A DNA stretch of 64,000 bases, from positions 682,001-746,000 of the forward strand of contig OY253654.1 in assembly GCA_958009055.1 (NCBI GenBank), in the 5' to 3' direction. The position numbers were made by a program, and so were the translations under genes. Position 1 is the stretch's first letter. The number at the start of each line of letters is the position of its first letter. The notes beneath the pieces were generated by a model. The model worked only from the letters and a program-made list of their open reading frames with translations, ran no database searches and was not told the DNA's origin. This document shows, in pieces, positions 5,241 to 64,000 of this stretch. This DNA is from Choricystis sp. odSpoLacu1 (lineage: Eukaryota; Chlorophyta; Trebouxiophyceae).

Positions 5241-5892
5241 ATGCCGCCCAAGCGCCCCCCTGTGGTCATCTCAGTACCTAGCACCGACCCTGGACGCGCC
5301 ACAGCGCCTGCCTCGACGTCCGCCCCACCCCATTCGCGCGACGGCCGCCCCGACAAGCCGCGCACCGCGCCCCGCCCTGCTGCTGGTCCTCCCACGACAA
5401 AAAAACCGAGTGAGAAGGCTACTGGCAAACCTGACGGCGGCGCCGCCGTCGCTGCAGCCGCCAAGCGGGGGGCGAGGGAGGAGGTGGACGCGCTGTTTGC
5501 GAGTGTCAAGACGAAGAAGAAGAGCAAGGCGAGTCGGGTAAAGAGGACAGGAGAGAGAGAGAGAGAGAGATGTGTGCTTGAGTGTGGCTGGTTCAGTTTG
5601 GAGCGCGGGAGGCGGTGGAGGAGGAGACCGCGTCGGGACACGCAGCCGATGTTAGCCCCCCGTTTTTCCCTTCCCACAGCCGTCGATGCCACCCCCACCA
5701 CCCAAACCCGCCACCACCGCTCCAGTCACTGGCTCCCTGGACGACGTGTTTGGGGATGGGTCCACCTGCGCCAACCGCGCGGGGCGTAAGCGCACGGAGG
5801 AAGGGTGGCCGGTGTACACAGAGGACGAACTGAAGCTGGGGGCGGGAGGGGGGACGGATGCTTGTCCGTTCGACTGCGGTTGCTGTTATTGA
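5241..5892 (+). CDS. DUF1764 family protein
   Basis: Two exons: 5241..5537 and 5680..5892 (169 aa). The N-terminal half is Pro/Ala-rich and low complexity, ending in a Lys-rich EEVDALFASVKTKKKSKASR segment. The C-terminal half carries the DUF1764 signature: GSLDDVFGDG, TEEGWPVYTEDELKLG and the Cys-rich tail CPFDCGCCY at the stop. The family is eukaryotic and of unknown function; the clustered cysteines suggest metal binding (inference). The donor used is gtaaag at 5538. A GC donor nine bases upstream (AAG|GCGAGT) would also keep the frame, so the end of exon 1 is uncertain by three residues. The last codons and 3' UTR are duplicated downstream (see repeat entry). Confidence 0.85.
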
Positions 5893-6130
5893 AGAGAGAG
5901 AGGGTGGGAGGCAGAGGAGGCGGTGTGTAGAAACATAGAAAAACCGGTTAAAATAAAAGCAAGTCAAAACACACACTCTTCACGGGTTGCGGTTTGGGGG
6001 CGGAGGGCGGCACCGATGCAGTGCCCTTTTTGACTGCGACTGCTGTTATTGAGGGTAGAGGGTGAGACAGGCAGGCAAAAAATGGGGTTGAAAAAAAAAC
6101 TGGTTAAAAGTCAAAAACACACTCTTTCTC
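5836..6130. repeat. Tandem duplication of the DUF1764 gene tail (two copies, period about 158 bp)
   Basis: Copy A (about 5836-5985) contains the last codons, stop and 3' UTR of the DUF1764 gene. Copy B (about 5993-6130) repeats the same order of words: a gggggcgg block, gatgc, gactgcg-ctgctgttattga, a purine-rich block, aa-tggttaaaa, agtcaaaa and acacactctt. Copy B still encodes DCDCCY followed by a stop, but one extra T breaks the frame just upstream, so it is a decayed duplicate and not a second gene. This and the short remainder account for the whole 5893-6261 interval before ATG16. Confidence 0.8.
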
Positions 6131-6261
6131 TCATTTTCCTCGACGAGGGGCGCCCACACTCCCACACCCACGCCTCTCACACACACCATGACGCACCCCT
6201 TTTGACGCACACACACACGCCTGCCCGCGTCTCACCTCCACCCGCAACGTCCGCCACCGCG

Positions 6262-8610
6262 ATGTGCGCCCTCGTCGCTGCGCTCCACGCACGCAACGCG
6301 GCGGGCGCCGCGTACGGGCGTGTCATCGCGGACTATGACGCCCTGGCGACTCGGTGTCTGGAGCTGGAGGTAAGGGTTGGGTGGGAGCAGGGAGAGGTGT
6401 GGGGGGAGGAATGGGGCATTCGCACAAACCCACGCCCTCCTCCTCACCACCACACCAGACGCGCACCCACCAACTCGACAAAGAAACCGCCGAACTGCGG
6501 GCTGAAGCCGCCGAATCGGCCGCTGCTGCCGCCGCCGCGCGCGCCGCGGCCGACCGCGCGGCGCCTGCGGCCGCGGCTGCACTGGCCGCTGTGTACAAAC
6601 AGAAGGCCGCACTGGCGGAGGAGGCGCTGGCGGCGGCTCGCCAGGTGGCGGTGTTGAGGGAGAGCAATGAGAAGCACGCGGCGGACGCGGAGCGGGCGCA
6701 GCGTGAAGCCGACGCTGCGCGCGCGGATGCTGCTGCCGCCCGTGCCGCCGCCCGAGCTGCGCAGGACGCTCTAGCTGCTGCTCAAGACGAGATGGCGGCC
6801 AGGCTGGCGGAACGCGAAGCGGCTGCTGAGCGGGCGGCGACAGCTGAAGCTGAGGTCTCTGATCTCGCCCGCCGTCTCGTCGAAATGAAGACCACCGAGA
6901 TCGACCGCGTCAACGCAGTGACGGAACAGTGTGCCGCCATGCTGGCGGACGCGCGCGCCAAGCAGCGGTCGGCGGCGGCGGATGCCGCGGCGGCCGCGGC
7001 GGCGGTGAGGGCAGGAGTGGGGAGTGTGGCTGGCGCGGCGGCGGCAGGGCTGCTGGATAGGATGAAAGGCGTGCGCCGCAGCTTGGCAGGCGGTGGTGCT
7101 GGTGCTGCGGCGGCCGAGGCGGCGCCAGACACACCTCCTCCCCCTCTTGACGACGACGACACGCCCCCCCCCGCCCCCAACTTCCCTCCTCCCCGACACC
7201 CTCACCGCCTGCCTCCCCCCCCACACGGGTGGCACTTACGCTGCCGCATTTGACGGCGCCGGCTGGCGCCTGGCCACCGCAGGCGGCGACAGGGCGGTGA
7301 GGTTGTGGGATGGGGCCACGGGGGCGCCTGCCGGTGCGCTGGCGGGGGCGGTGGACACGGTGACATCCGTCGCGTTCACGTGTGATCGCAGAGGGTTGCT
7401 GGCTGGGGGGGTGGATCAGGTAAGAGAGAGGGTTGGAGGGGTGGTTGGAGGAGTTGCCGCGGGCGGCCGGTCCGCCCTCGCCGACCTGCCCGCCTCCTCA
7501 ACTGCGAAGCTGCTGGCCGGGGACGCGGTGGCAGCGTCGCCGGGGCGGGGCTGGCGCTGGTGGGGGGGTCGGGCGGTGTTTTTTTTTTCCTCATGCCCCC
7601 TGGTCGCCGCCCTGCCCTCCACTTTGCCTCCCCGAAAGGTTGGTGTGTCCCTCCTGCGTGGCTGCCAAGCAAGCCCTGCGTGCGGACGACGCGACCTCAG
7701 CGGCGGCAGGTTTTTGCCTTTTTGATCGCGCCTAACCTTCTCCCCACGCGACCCCCACCACCCCTTTCCTCACAGTCCATCCGCTACTTTGACCTCGCCA
7801 CCTCCCGCGCCCGCCACACGCTGACCGGCCACACGGCAAAGGTCACCTCCGTCGCCTCCTCCCCCGCCGACGCCACGCGTGCCGCCTCTGCCGGCGCCGA
7901 CCGCGCCGTCCGCGTGTGGGACCTGGCCCGCGGCTACGCCGTGCGCGCCCTGCTGACGCCATCCACGCCGCACTGTGTGGCGTATGGGGTGGATGGGAGG
8001 AGTGTGGTGAGCGGCCACTTTGACGGCAGCGTGAGGCTGTGGGATGGGGCCACGGGGCGGGAAGCGGTGGCGGCGCCCAGGCTGCATGATGGGGGGGTGA
8101 CGTCGGTGTGTGTGAGCTTGACGGGAGGTGAGTTTGGTTGGTGGGGAGGGTGGAGGGAGGGAGGAGTGTGCGTGCGGGTTTTCGTCCGCCACCCACAAGG
8201 AGAGGGGGTTTTGTTTCCCTGCTTTCTTACACATTCACCAACACACCCCACACCACCAAACCACATCATCAGCTCGCATCCTCACCTGCGGCAAAGACTC
8301 CACGCTGCGCGTGTTGGACGCGCGGTCTTTGGGCACCCCTCTTTGCACTCTGCGCTCCCCAACCTTCACTGTCTCCACCGCGCACTGTGTCGCCAGCCTG
8401 GGCCCCGACGCCGCCCACGCGGCCGCCGGGTCGGCGGACGGCACGCTGCACGTGTGGAACGTGGAGAGTGGGGAGGTGGTGCGAGTGCTGGGGCGGGCGG
8501 GGGGGGCGCCGCTGCTGACGACTGCGTGGTCGCCGCGGGGGGTGCCGGTGGTGGCGGGGGACAAGGCGGGCGGGGTGTCGTTCTGGGCGGGGGGGGAGGG
8601 GGTGGAGTAG
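6262..8610 (+). CDS. ATG16: ATG16-like autophagy protein (coiled coil plus WD40), frame break in a C run
   Basis: Exons: 6262..6369, 6459..7419, 7776..8127, 8273..8610. About residues 5-240 form a long Ala/Glu/Arg-rich coiled coil. An acidic/Pro linker follows, then at least five WD40-type repeats (for example TAGGDRAVRLWDG, SAGADRAVRVWDL, VSGHFDGSVRLWDG, TCGKDSTLRVLDA, GSADGTLHVWNV). Coiled coil followed by a C-terminal WD40 propeller is the ATG16/ATG16L architecture, the partner of ATG5-ATG12 that directs ATG8 lipidation to autophagic membranes. Between linker and propeller the frame shifts by one base at the nine-C run 7164-7172. No AG acceptor exists between the run and the first WD repeat, so this is not a normal intron; one base less in the run gives 585 aa. 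Confidence 0.8.
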
Positions 8611-9355
8611 AGGTGGGGGTCTAGGGTTAGGGTTGGGTCACGCCGCCGCCTGCTACCAGCCGCAGTGGTGCTTGCTGGAGGTGGAGGAGGAGAGGAGGAA
8701 AGGGAAGGGGTGCGTGTGTTTTGTGTTTTTGAGTTTTACGTTTTGTCCTTTGCAGAAAAACTCACACAGCTACGTGAGCTTGCACTCATTGTTCCTCTCT
8801 GTCATGGCAAGAGTGTGATGCGTTGTTGTGAGGGTCGGGGCAGGGAGGCGGGGACGTGGAGGTGGAGATTGGGGAGGAGAGAAAAAATGAGGGTTGTGCG
8901 TTTTCAAAAACTCAGCAAAGTGTGGAAAGTTGCTTCTTTTTTCCCTCTCTGCGGAGCCAAGCGTTCCACACGTCGTTGTGAGGGGGCAGGACATGTAAGC
9001 GGGGACGTGGAGATGGAGTTTGGGGGGAGGGGGAAAATGGGGGGTTGAGCTTAATGCTGTCAAAACTCGATTTACTGTCGAAGATTACCCCCATTGTCCC
9101 TCTCTGCTGTGCCAAGGGGGCGGTGCATCGTTCTGGGGGGGTGAGGCAGTGAGGAGGGACGTGGCGGTGGAGGCAGATGAAGGAGGAGGAAACAGCGGTG
9201 TGTTTTGCGTTTTCAAAACTAACCAAACTGCGTAATCTAGCCCACATTCTCCCTCACTGCCGTGAAAAGGGGGCGGTGCATCGTTGGGGAGGGGCGTTGA
9301 GAGAGGAGGAGGAGGAGACAGTGTGTGTGTTGGTTTTGCGTTTTTTAACATCAAC
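8555..9355. repeat. Degenerate tandem array derived from the ATG16 gene tail (period about 150-156 bp)
   Basis: The 8611-9416 interval holds no gene. It contains at least four degenerate copies of one unit. Each has a (t)ccctc(t/a)ctg block (about 8792, 8941, 9097 and 9250), then g-caagg/gg-cg, tgc(g/a)tcgtt, a G-rich stretch with gggacgtggaggtggag, and ends tg-gttttgcgttttcaaaact. The aagg-gggcggtg-tcgttctggg part matches the last coding bases of ATG16 (about 8561-8590), so the array seems to have started by duplication of that gene's 3' end. Confidence 0.75.
8621..8637. repeat. Telomere-like motif (two TTAGGG units)
   Basis: The sequence ctagggttagggttggg lies 10 bp after the ATG16 stop codon. 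It is too short to be a telomere and sits at the start of the tandem array. Similar CCCTAA words lie 3 kb away after COX11. Confidence 0.6.
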
Positions 9356-9374
9356 CAACCGCGGCACAAACACC

Positions 9375-9402
9375 ACCTCTCTCTCTCTCTCTCTCTCTCC
9401 TC
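9375..9402. repeat. (CT)n microsatellite
   Basis: A CT dinucleotide run of about a dozen units lies in the 3' flank of the small single-TM protein gene on the minus strand, between it and the degenerate array. Confidence 0.8.
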
Positions 9403-9416
9403 CACCACATCCACAC

Positions 9417-9818
9417 TCACCCACCAAAGCCTTTGCCGCCACCGCGGGAGGAGACTTTTTTGGCTTTGGGGGGTTTGAGCGCCGCACTGCCGCCCGCGGC
9501 GGCACGGCTAGCAGCCGCCTGCTCGGCCTTTTTCCTTTCCGCTTTCTCAGCTTGGTCGTCCAGCCATCCCTGGAGAGACAGGTAGGCGACGCCGGCCGTC
9601 AACACGACCAGGGCGGCGGTGGCGACACCGAATGCGACAGACACGACGGGATCGGCGAGGGCGGCGTCGGCTGCGGCTGCGGCGGCCGCGGCAGTCTCAG
9701 GGGTGCCGTGTGGTGGAGGTGGCAGACGCCGCCGCCTGGTGGGCAGGCAGCTAGAGGAGGAGGGGCGGGGGGCGGTGTGGAGGGAGGGAAGGCGGACGGG
9801 ACTGGCGGCCGGGCGCAT
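9417..9818 (-). CDS. Small single-TM protein, probably plastid-targeted
   Basis: Single exon, 133 aa from the ATG at 9818. I chose this start because MRPAASPVRLPSLHTAPRPS begins a Ser/Pro/Arg-rich leader with no acidic residues, as in transit peptides; the frame stays open upstream but that extension looks like promoter sequence. An Ala-rich, acid-containing segment is followed by one clear transmembrane helix (VVSVAFGVATAALVVLTAGV). A charged amphipathic segment (LDDQAEKAERKKAEQ) and a basic, Gly-rich tail ending KGFGG complete it. I do not recognise a named family. A thylakoid or envelope location is an inference. Confidence 0.6.
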   Translation of the reverse strand: MRPAASPVRLPSLHTAPRPSSSSCLPTRRRRLPPPPHGTPETAAAAAAAADAALADPVVSVAFGVATAALVVLTAGVAYLSLQGWLDDQAEKAERKKAEQAAASRAAAGGSAALKPPKAKKVSSRGGGKGFGG

Positions 9819-10193
9819 TGTGGGGGCGAATTGGGGGGCTGGGGTGGGCGGTGGATGCAGGCGCGAGTGTGTGTGGTGTGGGAGGAGGCGTGGCGTGGGG
9901 GAGGCGCACGGCCCACGAACAGAAACAAACGGCAGGTGTGGCGCGACGTGTCGGCCGTCGACCCGACGTCGGCGTGTGATCAGCTGCTGGCGCCACCTCC
10001 GGTCCCCCTCGATCCACCGCCAGCATGGGCCAGGGAACGCGTGCCAGCAGCGAGGTGATTGGTGGGACGTGTGGGGTGGCTCCAGTGATTGAAAAATCGT
10101 CGGTAGATTTTTCCACGGTTGCCCAACTGTCGCCGCTGCCCACAACTATTAGTATACCCCTCAAAAACACAAAAGTGACACATCGTAAACCAA
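9819..10193. other. Intergenic spacer, 375 bp
   Basis: It presumably contains the promoter of the minus-strand small TM protein gene on its left side. The last 50 bp before the tRNA are AT-richer than the surroundings (actattagtatacccctc). No coding signal, repeat or RNA fold was seen elsewhere in it. Confidence 0.5.
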
Positions 10194-10288
10194 TCTCGTA
10201 TAGCTCAGTGGTAGAGCGTTTATTTAGTAGAAGCCTCAGGGCGCATCTATTCAGTAGAAGGCCCCGTGATCAAGACACGGTACGAGAA
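10194..10288 (+). tRNA. tRNA with a ~23-nt anticodon-loop intron (anticodon AGU/Thr in the simplest fold)
   Basis: A perfect 7-bp acceptor stem (TCTCGTA at 10194-10200 with TACGAGA at 10281-10287, discriminator A at 10288) encloses a perfect D stem GCTC/GAGC with conserved loop AGTGGTA. The T arm is also perfect: CCGTG/CACGG with loop ATCAAGA. T8, A14, G18-G19, A21, G53-C61, C56 and A58 are all canonical; A54 replaces the usual T. A T8 Pol III terminator starts four bases after the tRNA (10292-10299). Between G26 and a 5-nt variable loop there are 40 nt, so about 23 nt must be intron. The best anticodon stem is TTTAT/GTAGA with two G-U pairs, giving loop TTAGTAA. The isotype is therefore uncertain. 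Confidence 0.8.
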
Positions 10289-10572
10289 CACTTTTTTTTG
10301 CCTGTCGTCCCTTTTTCGCCTTTTCCGCTGTCGCCTCCACTGGAGCATGGTGTTGCCGGTTGCTGGACACAGGAGGGGGGGGTTGGGGCACCATGATATC
10401 GGTTGACAGCAAAAAAAACGGAGAACACAGCGACCGAGACGATCGTCACCACACTCCCGCGCCCCTGTTTATGTGGGTGTGACCCTGCGCGTCGGGGGCC
10501 CTCTCTCTCCCCTGTCCCGCCACGCCGCGTCAGGCAACACACACACGCACGCACACACACACAGGCCACCGC
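10289..10572. other. Spacer between tRNA and COX11
   Basis: It contains the T-run terminator of the tRNA and the COX11 promoter. CA-repeats occur close to the first candidate COX11 ATG. Nothing else was recognised. Confidence 0.4.
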
Positions 10573-11627
10573 ATGCAGCGGTCCCGCGTCACGGTAAGAG
10601 TGCGTGCGTGTGCGGGGCCAGGCGCGCCGCGCCGCACCACCTCAATTGCGTGTCGCCACGACCGACCCACCCTCCACACAAACCACAGGCCCTCACCCTC
10701 ACCGCCGCCTGCGCCGCCGCCGCCGCCGCCGTTGCCCTGCCCGCCCTGACGGCGACGCGCCCCTCGACCTCTCCCGCCGCCCCCGGCTTTCGCAAAGGCG
10801 CGGCGCGCGTGGCTGTGCACGAGTGGCGGAAGCCACCAGTGAGTTGGGAAAGCATGCTGGCCCACGCGGTGGCTGCCTGTGCCCGCCGGCGTGCCGCCAC
10901 CTGCGCCCGGCGCGCGTTTTCACAAAGCGCGCCGCGGTCGCCACCACCACCACCTCCGCGCCCCGACGTGACCGCCGCCGCGACAAACCAAGGCCTCTAC
11001 ATCTGCGCCCTCGTCGTCGGCATGGTCGGCGCCACCTATGGTGCCGTCCCCCTGTATCGCCTGTTCTGCCAAGCCACCGGCTTCGGCGGCACGGTGCGTG
11101 AGGGGGCGACAGTCGAAGCCAAACTGGCGGCTCGGTCGCGCGTCGCCACTCCCACCACTCGCCCCATCACCATCACCTTCAACGCCGACGTGGCTGACGG
11201 CCTGCACTGGAGGTTCACACCCGCCCAGCGCGCGGTGACGGTGCGGCCAGGGCAGTCGGCGCTGGCTTTCTTCACCGCCACGAACATGACGCAACGCCCC
11301 ATCACGGGCGTCTCCACCTACAACGTAGCCCCTCAACACGCCGCCCCCTACTTCAACAAGGTGCAGTGTTTTTGTTTCGAGGAGCAACGTCTGCTGCCGG
11401 GCGAGAGTGTGGACATGCCGGTCCTGTTTTATGTGGATCCCGAGTTTGAAACCGACAAACGGTTGACGGGGCTCGACACACTCACCCTGTCCTACACATT
11501 CTTCCTAGTGGATGACGGCACGCTGACCGAGGCGGAGGTCGCCTCCAGGCGAGCGGCCGCCGTGGCGGCGCGGGAGGAGGAGGAGAGGGTGGTGGCAGAG
11601 CTGGCGGCGAGGAGGGAAGGGAAGTGA
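10573..11627 (+). CDS. COX11: Cytochrome c oxidase assembly protein COX11
   Basis: The core is read from the ATG at 10854 (257 aa): MLAHAVAACARRRAATCARR is a classic mitochondrial presequence. It is followed by one TM helix (LYICALVVGMVGATYGAVPL) and the CtaG/COX11 domain. Copper-binding Cys172 and Cys174 are in QCFCFEEQ, preceded by the family segment YNVAPQHAAPYFNKV. COX11 delivers copper to the CuB site of cytochrome oxidase from the inner membrane, facing the intermembrane space. The open frame continues upstream through a possible exon pair (10573..10593 joined to 10689), starting MQRSRVT; I give the wide span but favour 10854, whose context (A at -3) and leader are better. The C-terminal 20 codons are charged (EEEERVVAELAARREGK) and are part of a tandem tail duplication downstream. 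Confidence 0.9.
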
Positions 11628-11687
11628 GTTTTTTTTCTTCTTTTTTTTTCTGTTAGTTGTTCACCATCTGCGTTTGTTTTTTGCTTG

Positions 11688-11704
11688 CCTAACCCTAACC
11701 CTAT
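11688..11704. repeat. Telomere-like motif 1 (CCTAACCCTAACCCTAT)
   Basis: Short interstitial CCCTAA repeat in the 3' flank of COX11, copied with the tail duplication. Confidence 0.7.
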
Positions 11705-11843
11705 CCTCTGGCCCGGTCCCATGTGGCGGCGAGGGAGGAGAGGGCGGTGGCCGAGGTGGCGGCAAGAAGAAACGGTGGTGGTAATGTTTTTTCTGTAGCA
11801 GTTGTTTTCCATCATCTGCGTCTGCTTCTTCTACTCCTGCCTA

Positions 11844-11860
11844 CCTAACCCTAACCCTAC
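11844..11860. repeat. Telomere-like motif 2 (CCTAACCCTAACCCTAC)
   Basis: Second copy, 156 bp after the first and at the same position within the duplicated tail unit. Confidence 0.7.
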
Positions 11861-12013
11861 AATCCTCTTCTCGCCACCTGACCGCCAGGGAGGGAGGGAG
11901 GATGAATAGAGGGCGGCAGAGACGGCGGCGCGGAAAAAGGGGGGTGATGGTGGTTGCTTCCTTGTTTTCATTTGCAAAAAAACCTGTCTCCACGTCCAAC
12001 AAACATCTCTCTC

Positions 12014-12493
12014 TCAACCCTCCACCACACTCTCTTTCTCTCTCTCCGCCCGCGCCGCCGCGCGTCTTAAGTGCCGCCGCTGCAGCGCGTTGAGCGCCGC
12101 GGGCGCCTTGCCCGCGGCCGCCTCACCCGCCCACTGAGCGGCAGCCGTCGCCCAGCCCGGAGGTGGAGGAGGCGGAGGAGAGACAGACGTCGGTGGCGCC
12201 TCCTCCACTGCCGTCACCACCTGTCCCAAAAGCCAAGCCGGCGCCGTCACCGTCGGCCGCAGCGCGCGCGCGGCGGCGCCCGTGCCCACGCCCGCGTTGG
12301 CCCGGGCTCGACGCACGGGGGAGGGGGTGGCGATGCCCAGGGTGGGGGAGAAGTGGGAGTGGTCCACGAGGTTGGGAGGTGAAGGGGGTTTTGCGGCGGC
12401 AGCGCGAGGCGGCAGGCGCGACCTTGCCGCCGCCACCCGTATCCGGGGCGGCGGGGGAGCGGTGTATGTGGTGGTGGCGGCGTCTTCAGACAT
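12014..12493 (-). CDS. Hypothetical protein, Pro/Ala-rich
   Basis: Single open frame of 159 aa starting MSEDAATTTYTAPPPPRIRV. It is Pro/Ala/Arg-rich and lacks a signal peptide or membrane segment. The C-terminal 50 residues (GWATAAAQWAGEAAAGKAPA, then LNALQRRHLRRAAARAEREK) are probably helical and are the most protein-like part. It is divergent from the SCFD2-like gene with 113 bp between start codons, which favours a real gene sharing a bidirectional promoter. No family recognised. It could also have an undetected intron. Confidence 0.5.
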   Translation of the reverse strand: MSEDAATTTYTAPPPPRIRVAAARSRLPPRAAAAKPPSPPNLVDHSHFSPTLGIATPSPVRRARANAGVGTGAAARALRPTVTAPAWLLGQVVTAVEEAPPTSVSPPPPPPPGWATAAAQWAGEAAAGKAPAALNALQRRHLRRAAARAEREKESVVEG

Positions 12494-63645: not shown

Positions 63646-64000
63646 TCACGCCGCCGCGCTCGCCACGCTCCGCAGCAGCGCCCTGACCTCGGCCAGAACG
63701 TCCGCCATGGTCGGCCGATCCAGCGGATCCGCCGCCCAGCACCGCCGCACCATTTCCACGAACGCGGGCGGCGAGTCGGGGGGCAGGTCGGGGCGCGCTT
63801 GCCCGTACACCACCGCGTATACGATTTGTCCAACTGCTAACCCTAAAAATGGCTTGTCCCCGCTCGCCAGTTCACAGGCCAGAAGCCCAAACGCGTAAAC
63901 GTCGGCCGCGGGGGACAGGTGCCCCGTGGCCAGGACTTCGGGGGGTTGGTAGGTGACGGTGCCGTAGGTCTGGGTGGAGACGTGGGTTTGAACCGTGACG
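63646..64000 (-). CDS. TKL-type protein kinase, C-terminal part (5' beyond the window)
   Basis: 118 residues are visible from the right edge to the stop at 63646. They contain the end of the activation segment and the C-lobe: TQTYGTVTYQPPEVLATGHL, SPAADVYAFGLLACELASGD, KPFLGLAVGQIVYAVVYGQA, RPDLPP and MVRRCWAADPLDRPTMADVL. The PPEV, ADVYAFG and CW-ADP-DRP motifs are those of tyrosine-kinase-like (Raf/MLK/MAPKKK-type) Ser/Thr kinases. The N-lobe and any regulatory domain lie outside the window. The CTAACCCTAA word near 63836 is inside this coding sequence. Confidence 0.85.
   Translation of the reverse strand, partial: VTVQTHVSTQTYGTVTYQPPEVLATGHLSPAADVYAFGLLACELASGDKPFLGLAVGQIVYAVVYGQARPDLPPDSPPAFVEMVRRCWAADPLDRPTMADVLAEVRALLRSVASAAA

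What the first reader, a model, noticed from the sequence alone, without database searches (positions are those of the whole stretch)
5836..11960. Shared pattern: three gene tails duplicated with a nucleosome-sized period
DUF1764, ATG16 and COX11 all show tandem duplication of last codons plus 3' UTR, with periods of about 158, 150-156 and 156-161 bp. All three lie on the plus strand within 6 kb. The similar unit length suggests one mechanism, for example repeated repair or replication slippage at transcription ends limited by nucleosome size. I know of no named system that does this.
Basis: inference. Interest (0 to 1): 0.75.

Follow-up and report, generated by a model that had tools for sequence, protein, structure and literature searches.

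The report
Clustered tail duplications in an alga
Three neighbouring genes of a small green alga each carry side-by-side, decayed copies of their own trailing end, most likely ordinary repair duplications clustered in one fragile spot rather than a nucleosome-measured process.

Summary
DUF1764, ATG16 and COX11 are followed by diverged head-to-tail copies of their 3' ends (2; 4 clear plus 1 interrupted; 2 clear plus 1 probable), spaced about 143-161 bp. For DUF1764 and COX11 the copies clearly include the last 53-63 coding bases; for ATG16 this is weaker (p about 1e-4). The arrays share no clear sequence with each other, so they are separate duplications. The nucleosome reading is not supported in the 314 kb examined. 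Of 196 scored candidate gene ends, strong hits (z at least 8) at lags 140-170 occur only at these three loci; other clear AT-rich duplications have periods of 62, 73 and 77-79 bp. Copy divergences differ (K80 0.22-0.54), against a single episode. New fact: perfect TTAGGG-type runs of 13-16 bp sit in the ATG16 and COX11 tails and nowhere else at 11 bp or more in the 314 kb. I read the region as a local hotspot of error-prone break repair, whose duplications survived because one spanning a stop codon leaves the protein intact. Confidence is moderate; the whole-genome test could not be run.

The parts
5674..5892 (+). Terminal piece of the DUF1764 gene, stop TGA at 5890-5892
   Evidence: PF08576 61.5 bits; sequence
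5837..5994 (+). DUF1764 tail unit 1: last 53 coding bases before the stop, plus 3' flank
5995..6127 (+). DUF1764 tail unit 2, decayed copy
8562..8800 (+). ATG16 unit u0: coding tail (stop TAG 8608-8610) plus 3' flank, with an extra stretch of about 60 nt (roughly 8617-8676, judged from the alignment)
   Evidence: coding part p about 1e-4; 8676-8800, E 1e-6
8622..8634 (+). Telomere-type run TAGGGTTAGGGTT inside the extra stretch of u0
8801..8950 (+). ATG16 array unit u1
8951..9105 (+). ATG16 array unit u2
9106..9258 (+). ATG16 array unit u3
9259..9390 (+). ATG16 array unit u4; the array ends near the stop (9417-9419) of a convergent minus-strand gene
11562..11722 (+). COX11 tail unit 1: last 63 coding bases before the stop (TGA 11625-11627), plus 3' flank
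11723..11887 (+). COX11 tail unit 2
11888..12043 (+). COX11 tail unit 3, probable, more diverged
   Evidence: weak by the two-unit profile
11688..11703 (-). Telomere-type run (CCTAACCCTAACCCTA on the + strand) in COX11 unit 1
11844..11859 (-). The same 16-mer at the corresponding place in COX11 unit 2

Best explanation
These are ordinary small tandem duplications that arose independently and more than once in one fragile stretch of about 6 kb. Inferred mechanism: staggered breaks were filled in and end-joined, which copies the stretch between the nicks, and some arrays were later lengthened by slippage or unequal exchange. They appear at gene tails because a duplication spanning a stop codon leaves the first, complete copy of the coding end in place, so selection does not remove it. 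Short telomere-type runs in two of the tails are read as further repair scars. Shown: the copies, the coding content of two of them, the lack of shared sequence between arrays, the local clustering and the telomere-type runs. Inferred: the break-repair route and the selection filter. Why the three share a size of about 155 bp is not explained.
For: Head-to-tail copies far above shuffles. The arrays share no clear sequence (forward scores 34, 38 and 48; reversed controls 28, 37 and 51). The ATG16 array has no other match in the whole genome (a word-based search). Divergence ranges from K80 0.22 to 0.54, hence several events. Smaller duplications lie in non-coding DNA elsewhere: 62 bp in a probable intron, 73 bp after a stop, 77-79 bp after a stop or in an intron. 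The only perfect telomere-type runs of 11 bp or more in 314 kb lie in these tails (order-2 Markov expectation 0.003-0.004 for each 11-mer on one strand). Literature: small duplications arise at breaks with complementary 3' overhangs through CST, a telomere factor, and Pol alpha-primase (PMC8355091, passages). Rice insertions of 10-1000 bp attributed to inaccurate break repair include tandem duplications (PMC7407515, passages). Telomeric repeats were inserted at break sites in mammals (PMC2246262, passages).
Against: Three neighbouring arrays within a narrow period range, starting 46-63 bases before their stops, are more alike than random placement predicts. In the passages read, break overhangs were about 43-50 bp, shorter than 155. 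No empty-site allele or relative's DNA could be read. The telomere-type runs are only about 2-2.7 units. A weak possible fourth case at lag 146 lies at a minus-strand gene tail (C1:319181, score 57), and two further weak gene-end hits have lags 157 and 159 (see Tried and rejected).
Confidence: 0.55

Rival explanations
1. Slippage or unequal exchange alone made the arrays; the shared size and clustering are coincidence, and the telomere-type runs are unrelated.
For: Multi-copy ATG16 array with units of several ages. Tandem duplications of other sizes occur elsewhere.
Against: Three loci in about 6 kb against three clear low-GC ones in the other roughly 308 kb (Poisson P about 4e-5 by my own arithmetic, and post hoc).
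Confidence: 0.25
2. A process at transcription ends, limited by nucleosome size, duplicates gene tails.
For: Lags of 143-161 at three loci; starts 46-63 bases before the stop. AT content in the ATG16 array repeats at about 150 bp. Medakamo hakoo, a possible relative, has no detected linker histone H1 (PMC9871001, passages), which could suit a short repeat length (inference).
Against: No clear excess at 150-160 in the remaining gene ends; other clear duplications are 62-79 bp. A periodic AT trough is a trivial result of any repeat.
Confidence: 0.1
3. The arrays are functional units, such as repeated termination or polyadenylation regions between convergent genes, kept by selection.
For: The ATG16 array lies between convergent 3' ends, and the COX11 array probably does (minus-strand coding segment 12081-12482; its stop scored low). 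Some boxes are shared by u0-u4.
Against: The DUF1764 array lies between two plus-strand genes. Units diverge with many gaps.
Confidence: 0.07
4. The arrays are copies of a dispersed element, satellite or introner.
For: About 155 bp is a common satellite or introner size (recalled). COX11 profiles give some weak hits elsewhere (up to 21.4 bits).
Against: No cross-similarity of the three arrays. The ATG16 array is unique in the genome. The DUF1764 and COX11 units carry their own gene's tail.
Confidence: 0.03

Closest known systems
Small tandem duplications made by break repair (CST/Pol alpha-primase fill-in with NHEJ; plant 'patch-mediated' repair)
   Same: Adjacent head-to-tail copies, tens to hundreds of bp, not tied to a mobile element
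   Different: Units here are larger than the overhangs in the passages read, old and diverged, partly multi-copy, and clustered at three neighbouring gene tails
Interstitial telomeric sequences inserted at break sites (mammals)
   Same: Short TTAGGG-type runs at internal sites, one in an apparent insertion
   Different: Only about 2-2.7 units, below the four-unit cut of PMC2246262; no empty site seen; lies inside tail duplications
Introners (mobile introns; algal ones favour nucleosome linkers, PMC9860276 passages)
   Same: Similar length scale in some algae (recalled)
   Different: Not found dispersed, not introns, arrays unlike each other

Membership tests
Small tandem duplication | Adjacent head-to-tail copies above chance | tested here: met
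Small tandem duplication | Not part of a dispersed element | tested here: met
   ATG16 array, whole genome; all three, 314 kb only, with weak COX11 profile hits up to 21.4 bits
Small tandem duplication by break repair | Junction microhomology or filler, and an empty site in a relative | not testable with these tools
   Copies too old to read junctions; no DNA of the relative was reachable (one search found none in viral contigs)
Nucleosome-limited 3'-end process | Peak of unit length at 150-160 at gene ends generally | tested here: not met
   196 candidate ends in 314 kb of 14.6 Mb
Nucleosome-limited 3'-end process | Units in register with nucleosomes | not testable with these tools
   No MNase data
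Interstitial telomeric sequence | About two or more telomeric units at an internal site | tested here: met
   runs of 13, 16 and 16 nt
Interstitial telomeric sequence | At least four units (cut used in PMC2246262) | tested here: not met
Interstitial telomeric sequence | Motif equals this genome's own telomere | not tested
   Fetch of chromosome ends unanswered; M. hakoo telomere is TTAGGG
Introner or satellite family | Many dispersed similar copies | tested here: not met
   (whole genome for ATG16 only)

The most novel reading that the evidence does not exclude
A fragile chromosomal spot where breaks recur at transcript ends and are repaired in steps of about one nucleosome, with occasional capture of telomeric repeats, so that neighbouring genes independently gain tandem tails of the same length, each starting about 50-60 bases before the stop.
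Probability: 0.1. Interest if true: 0.65.

Novelty: new member of a known kind. Interest (0 to 1): 0.32.

Why it matters
If it is an ordinary hotspot, it is a small, clean example of how stop-codon-spanning duplications can escape selection and lengthen 3' flanks in a compact genome. If the shared length were shown to follow nucleosomes, it would tie break position to chromatin at gene ends. The telomere-type runs in the same spot offer a handle on the repair route.

Tried and rejected
TRF at its default score did not report the arrays. Dispersed-element idea: rejected, with the whole-genome search done for the ATG16 array only. Single-episode idea: disfavoured because K80 values differ. General 150-160 peak: tested on 196 gene ends, not seen. 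Two weak gene-end hits with similar lags (lag 157 at C6 window coordinate 66790, minus, z 6.1; lag 159 at C1:394407, plus, z 6.2) were inspected and look like low-complexity runs; this rests on the raw sequence, whose printed alignments matched each stretch to itself and say nothing. A lag-149 hit at C1:396635 is 95% GC. A weak lag-146 case at C1:319181 stays open. Lag 427 at C1:323881 falls on similar splice-site regions. High-GC hits (at score 56: 252 real and 89 reversed windows) were left out and not examined one by one. Relatives' DNA: viral contigs gave none. Only proteins of a relative were available: P0001 (COX11, 95% identical) and P0122 (ATG16-like, 78% over 45% of the query), both listed with a longest contig of 45,980 bp. 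P0001 ends as unit 1 of COX11 does; P0122 is three residues longer than our ATG16 tail, which I read by eye. Literature on nucleosome-sized or 3'-end tandem duplications: searches (10 of 649 papers listed; 8 of 27; 2 of 2) showed no title or abstract start describing this; only listings were seen and only open-licence papers are held, so absence is not shown.
Full report
WHAT IS THERE. The window is part of contig C6 (682001-746000) of a 14.6 Mb, 19-contig genome; the window is 69.9% GC. COX11 search hits include Elliptochloris, Coccomyxa and Chlorella (that these are trebouxiophycean algae is recalled), and genome size and GC resemble Medakamo hakoo (15.8 Mb, 72.7% GC; PMC9871001, passages only). 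I infer a relative of that kind; the species is not shown.

The three genes are as named: DUF1764 (PF08576, 61.5 bits), an ATG16-like protein (ATG16 domain 23.5 bits, below the 33.7 cut-off, with WD40 repeats above cut-off) and COX11 (PF04442, 192.7 bits).

THE COPIES. A self-BLAST of the window listed ten pairs 60-1000 bp apart. Four map to the reported loci: lags 158, 150 and 155, and a second ATG16 row at 305. The other six lie elsewhere and were not followed one by one; those re-listed have GC 0.65-0.85. Against 2000 dinucleotide shuffles none equalled the real score for DUF1764 (100 against a maximum of 40), COX11 (114 against 36), COX11 units 1-2 against 3 (59 against 35) and ATG16 u1 against the rest (105 against 48). 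For ATG16 u0 taken whole, 2 of 2000 shuffles did as well (score 51, maximum 53; reversed control 47), the region being G-rich and interrupted; the coding tail alone gave 0 of 2000 (51 against 46; reversed 36). Profiles of the units match the units they were built from by construction. The independent results are the second half of u0 (26.0 bits, E 1e-6) and COX11 unit 3 with a two-unit profile (20.2 bits, no better than unrelated places on C1 and C3 at 21.4 and 20.7 bits), so unit 3 is only probable. ATG16's own stop was not in the top 25 of the gene-end scan; its array was picked up from the convergent minus-strand gene at 9419.

Coding content: COX11 unit 2 still reads VAAREERAVAEVAARRNGGG; DUF1764 unit 2 reads GAEGGTDAVPF and, in another frame, FDCDCCY*. 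So these copies are old gene tails, now decayed. The duplicated stretches start 53, about 46 and 63 bases before the three stops.

INDEPENDENCE AND AGE. Scores between the three arrays (34, 38, 48 forward; 34-37 on the other strand) are close to those against reversed or complemented sequence (24-51). The ATG16 array has one match, itself, in the whole genome; the same search for the other two did not complete. Gap-free K80 distances: DUF1764 0.23; COX11 0.22 (1-2), 0.36 (2-3), 0.48 (1-3); ATG16 u1-u4 0.24 to 0.54. With 19-38% divergence between copies assembly error is unlikely, and they probably did not all form at once.

IS IT GENERAL? I examined 314 kb: the window, its 10 kb flanks, 100 kb each of C1 and C3, and 10 kb each of C2, C5 and C8. 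In a sliding scan (score at least 54, window GC under 0.68) ten clusters appeared: the three loci (lags 158, 150, 143); lags 62, 77 and 73 (clear); lag 146 (weak, score 57); lag 427 (splice-site-like); and two at lag 34 where the reversed control scored as high. High-GC windows gave many more hits, in real (252 at score 56) and reversed (89) sequence; I left them out unexamined.

Of 197 candidate gene ends (a crude codon-usage caller; DUF1764 was added by hand because it fell below the caller's threshold), 196 could be scored. At z 6 there are 17 real and 5 reversed, at z 8 there are 9 and 0. The nine are the DUF1764, COX11 and ATG16-array ends (lags 158, 161, 152), two rows for the C3 73-bp duplication (lags 73 and 78), the C1 intron (69), the C1 77-bp case, and two at lags 329 and 253 (the last with a reversed z of 7.0). 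Weaker hits at lags 157 and 159 (z 6.1 and 6.2) looked like low-complexity runs. After removing eight strong ends, the mean score at lag 150 equals the null (16.32 against 16.31); at lag 160 it is 16.73 against 16.38 (null sd 0.14), a small rise matched by other lags such as 310 (18.10 against 17.40, sd 0.22). A weak general signal cannot be wholly excluded, and the sample is about 2% of the genome.

The 62-bp duplication lies in an intron judged by splice-site-like borders; the 73-bp one lies after a stop; the 77-79-bp one lies after a stop or in an intron, which I could not decide.

TELOMERE-TYPE RUNS. TAGGGTTAGGGTT (8622-8634) lies in an extra stretch of about 60 nt in ATG16 u0. CCTAACCCTAACCCTA lies at corresponding places in COX11 units 1 and 2 (11688 and 11844). 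One further run of 10 nt lies at 63837. There are no other perfect runs of 10 nt or more in the 314 kb; order-2 Markov expectation is 0.003-0.004 for each 11-mer on one strand. The COX11 pair counts as one event. That the runs are telomeric in this species is assumed: the ends could not be read.

READING. A tandem duplication that begins inside the last codons and ends in the 3' flank leaves the first copy of the coding end whole, so it should be nearly neutral; one inside the coding region is usually not. This filter alone would put surviving duplications at gene tails, without any 3'-end mechanism (inference). Break repair with fill-in is a documented source of small tandem duplications (PMC8355091, passages; PMC7407515, passages), and telomeric repeats have been inserted at breaks in mammals, at some loci with duplication of flanking sequence (PMC2246262, passages). 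Clustering with telomere-type runs makes a local break-prone stretch my preferred reading.

Noticed in passing
window 10194-10288: A tRNA gene with a 23-nt intron in the anticodon loop (ARAGORN with introns: Thr, AGT; Rfam RF00005 45.4 bits), not reported by the default scan.
   Followed up: partly
window 8622-8634, 11688-11703, 11844-11859: Short telomere-type repeats in the ATG16 and COX11 3' flanks, the only perfect ones of 11 nt or more in 314 kb.
   Followed up: partly
L005 (C1:344555-344700): A 62-bp tandem duplication, 93% identical, inside what looks like an intron of a minus-strand gene.
   Followed up: partly
L015 (C3:549109-549254): A recent-looking 73-bp tandem duplication (94.5% identical) just after a stop codon.
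   Followed up: partly
L002 (C1:319181-319433): Weak tandem similarity at lag 146 at the tail of a minus-strand gene; possible fourth case or chance.
   Followed up: partly
protein P0003: A COX11 record named Artemisia annua ranks third (373 bits), well above the other land plants in the 120 rows listed, for this algal query; possibly algal contamination of that assembly.
   Followed up: no
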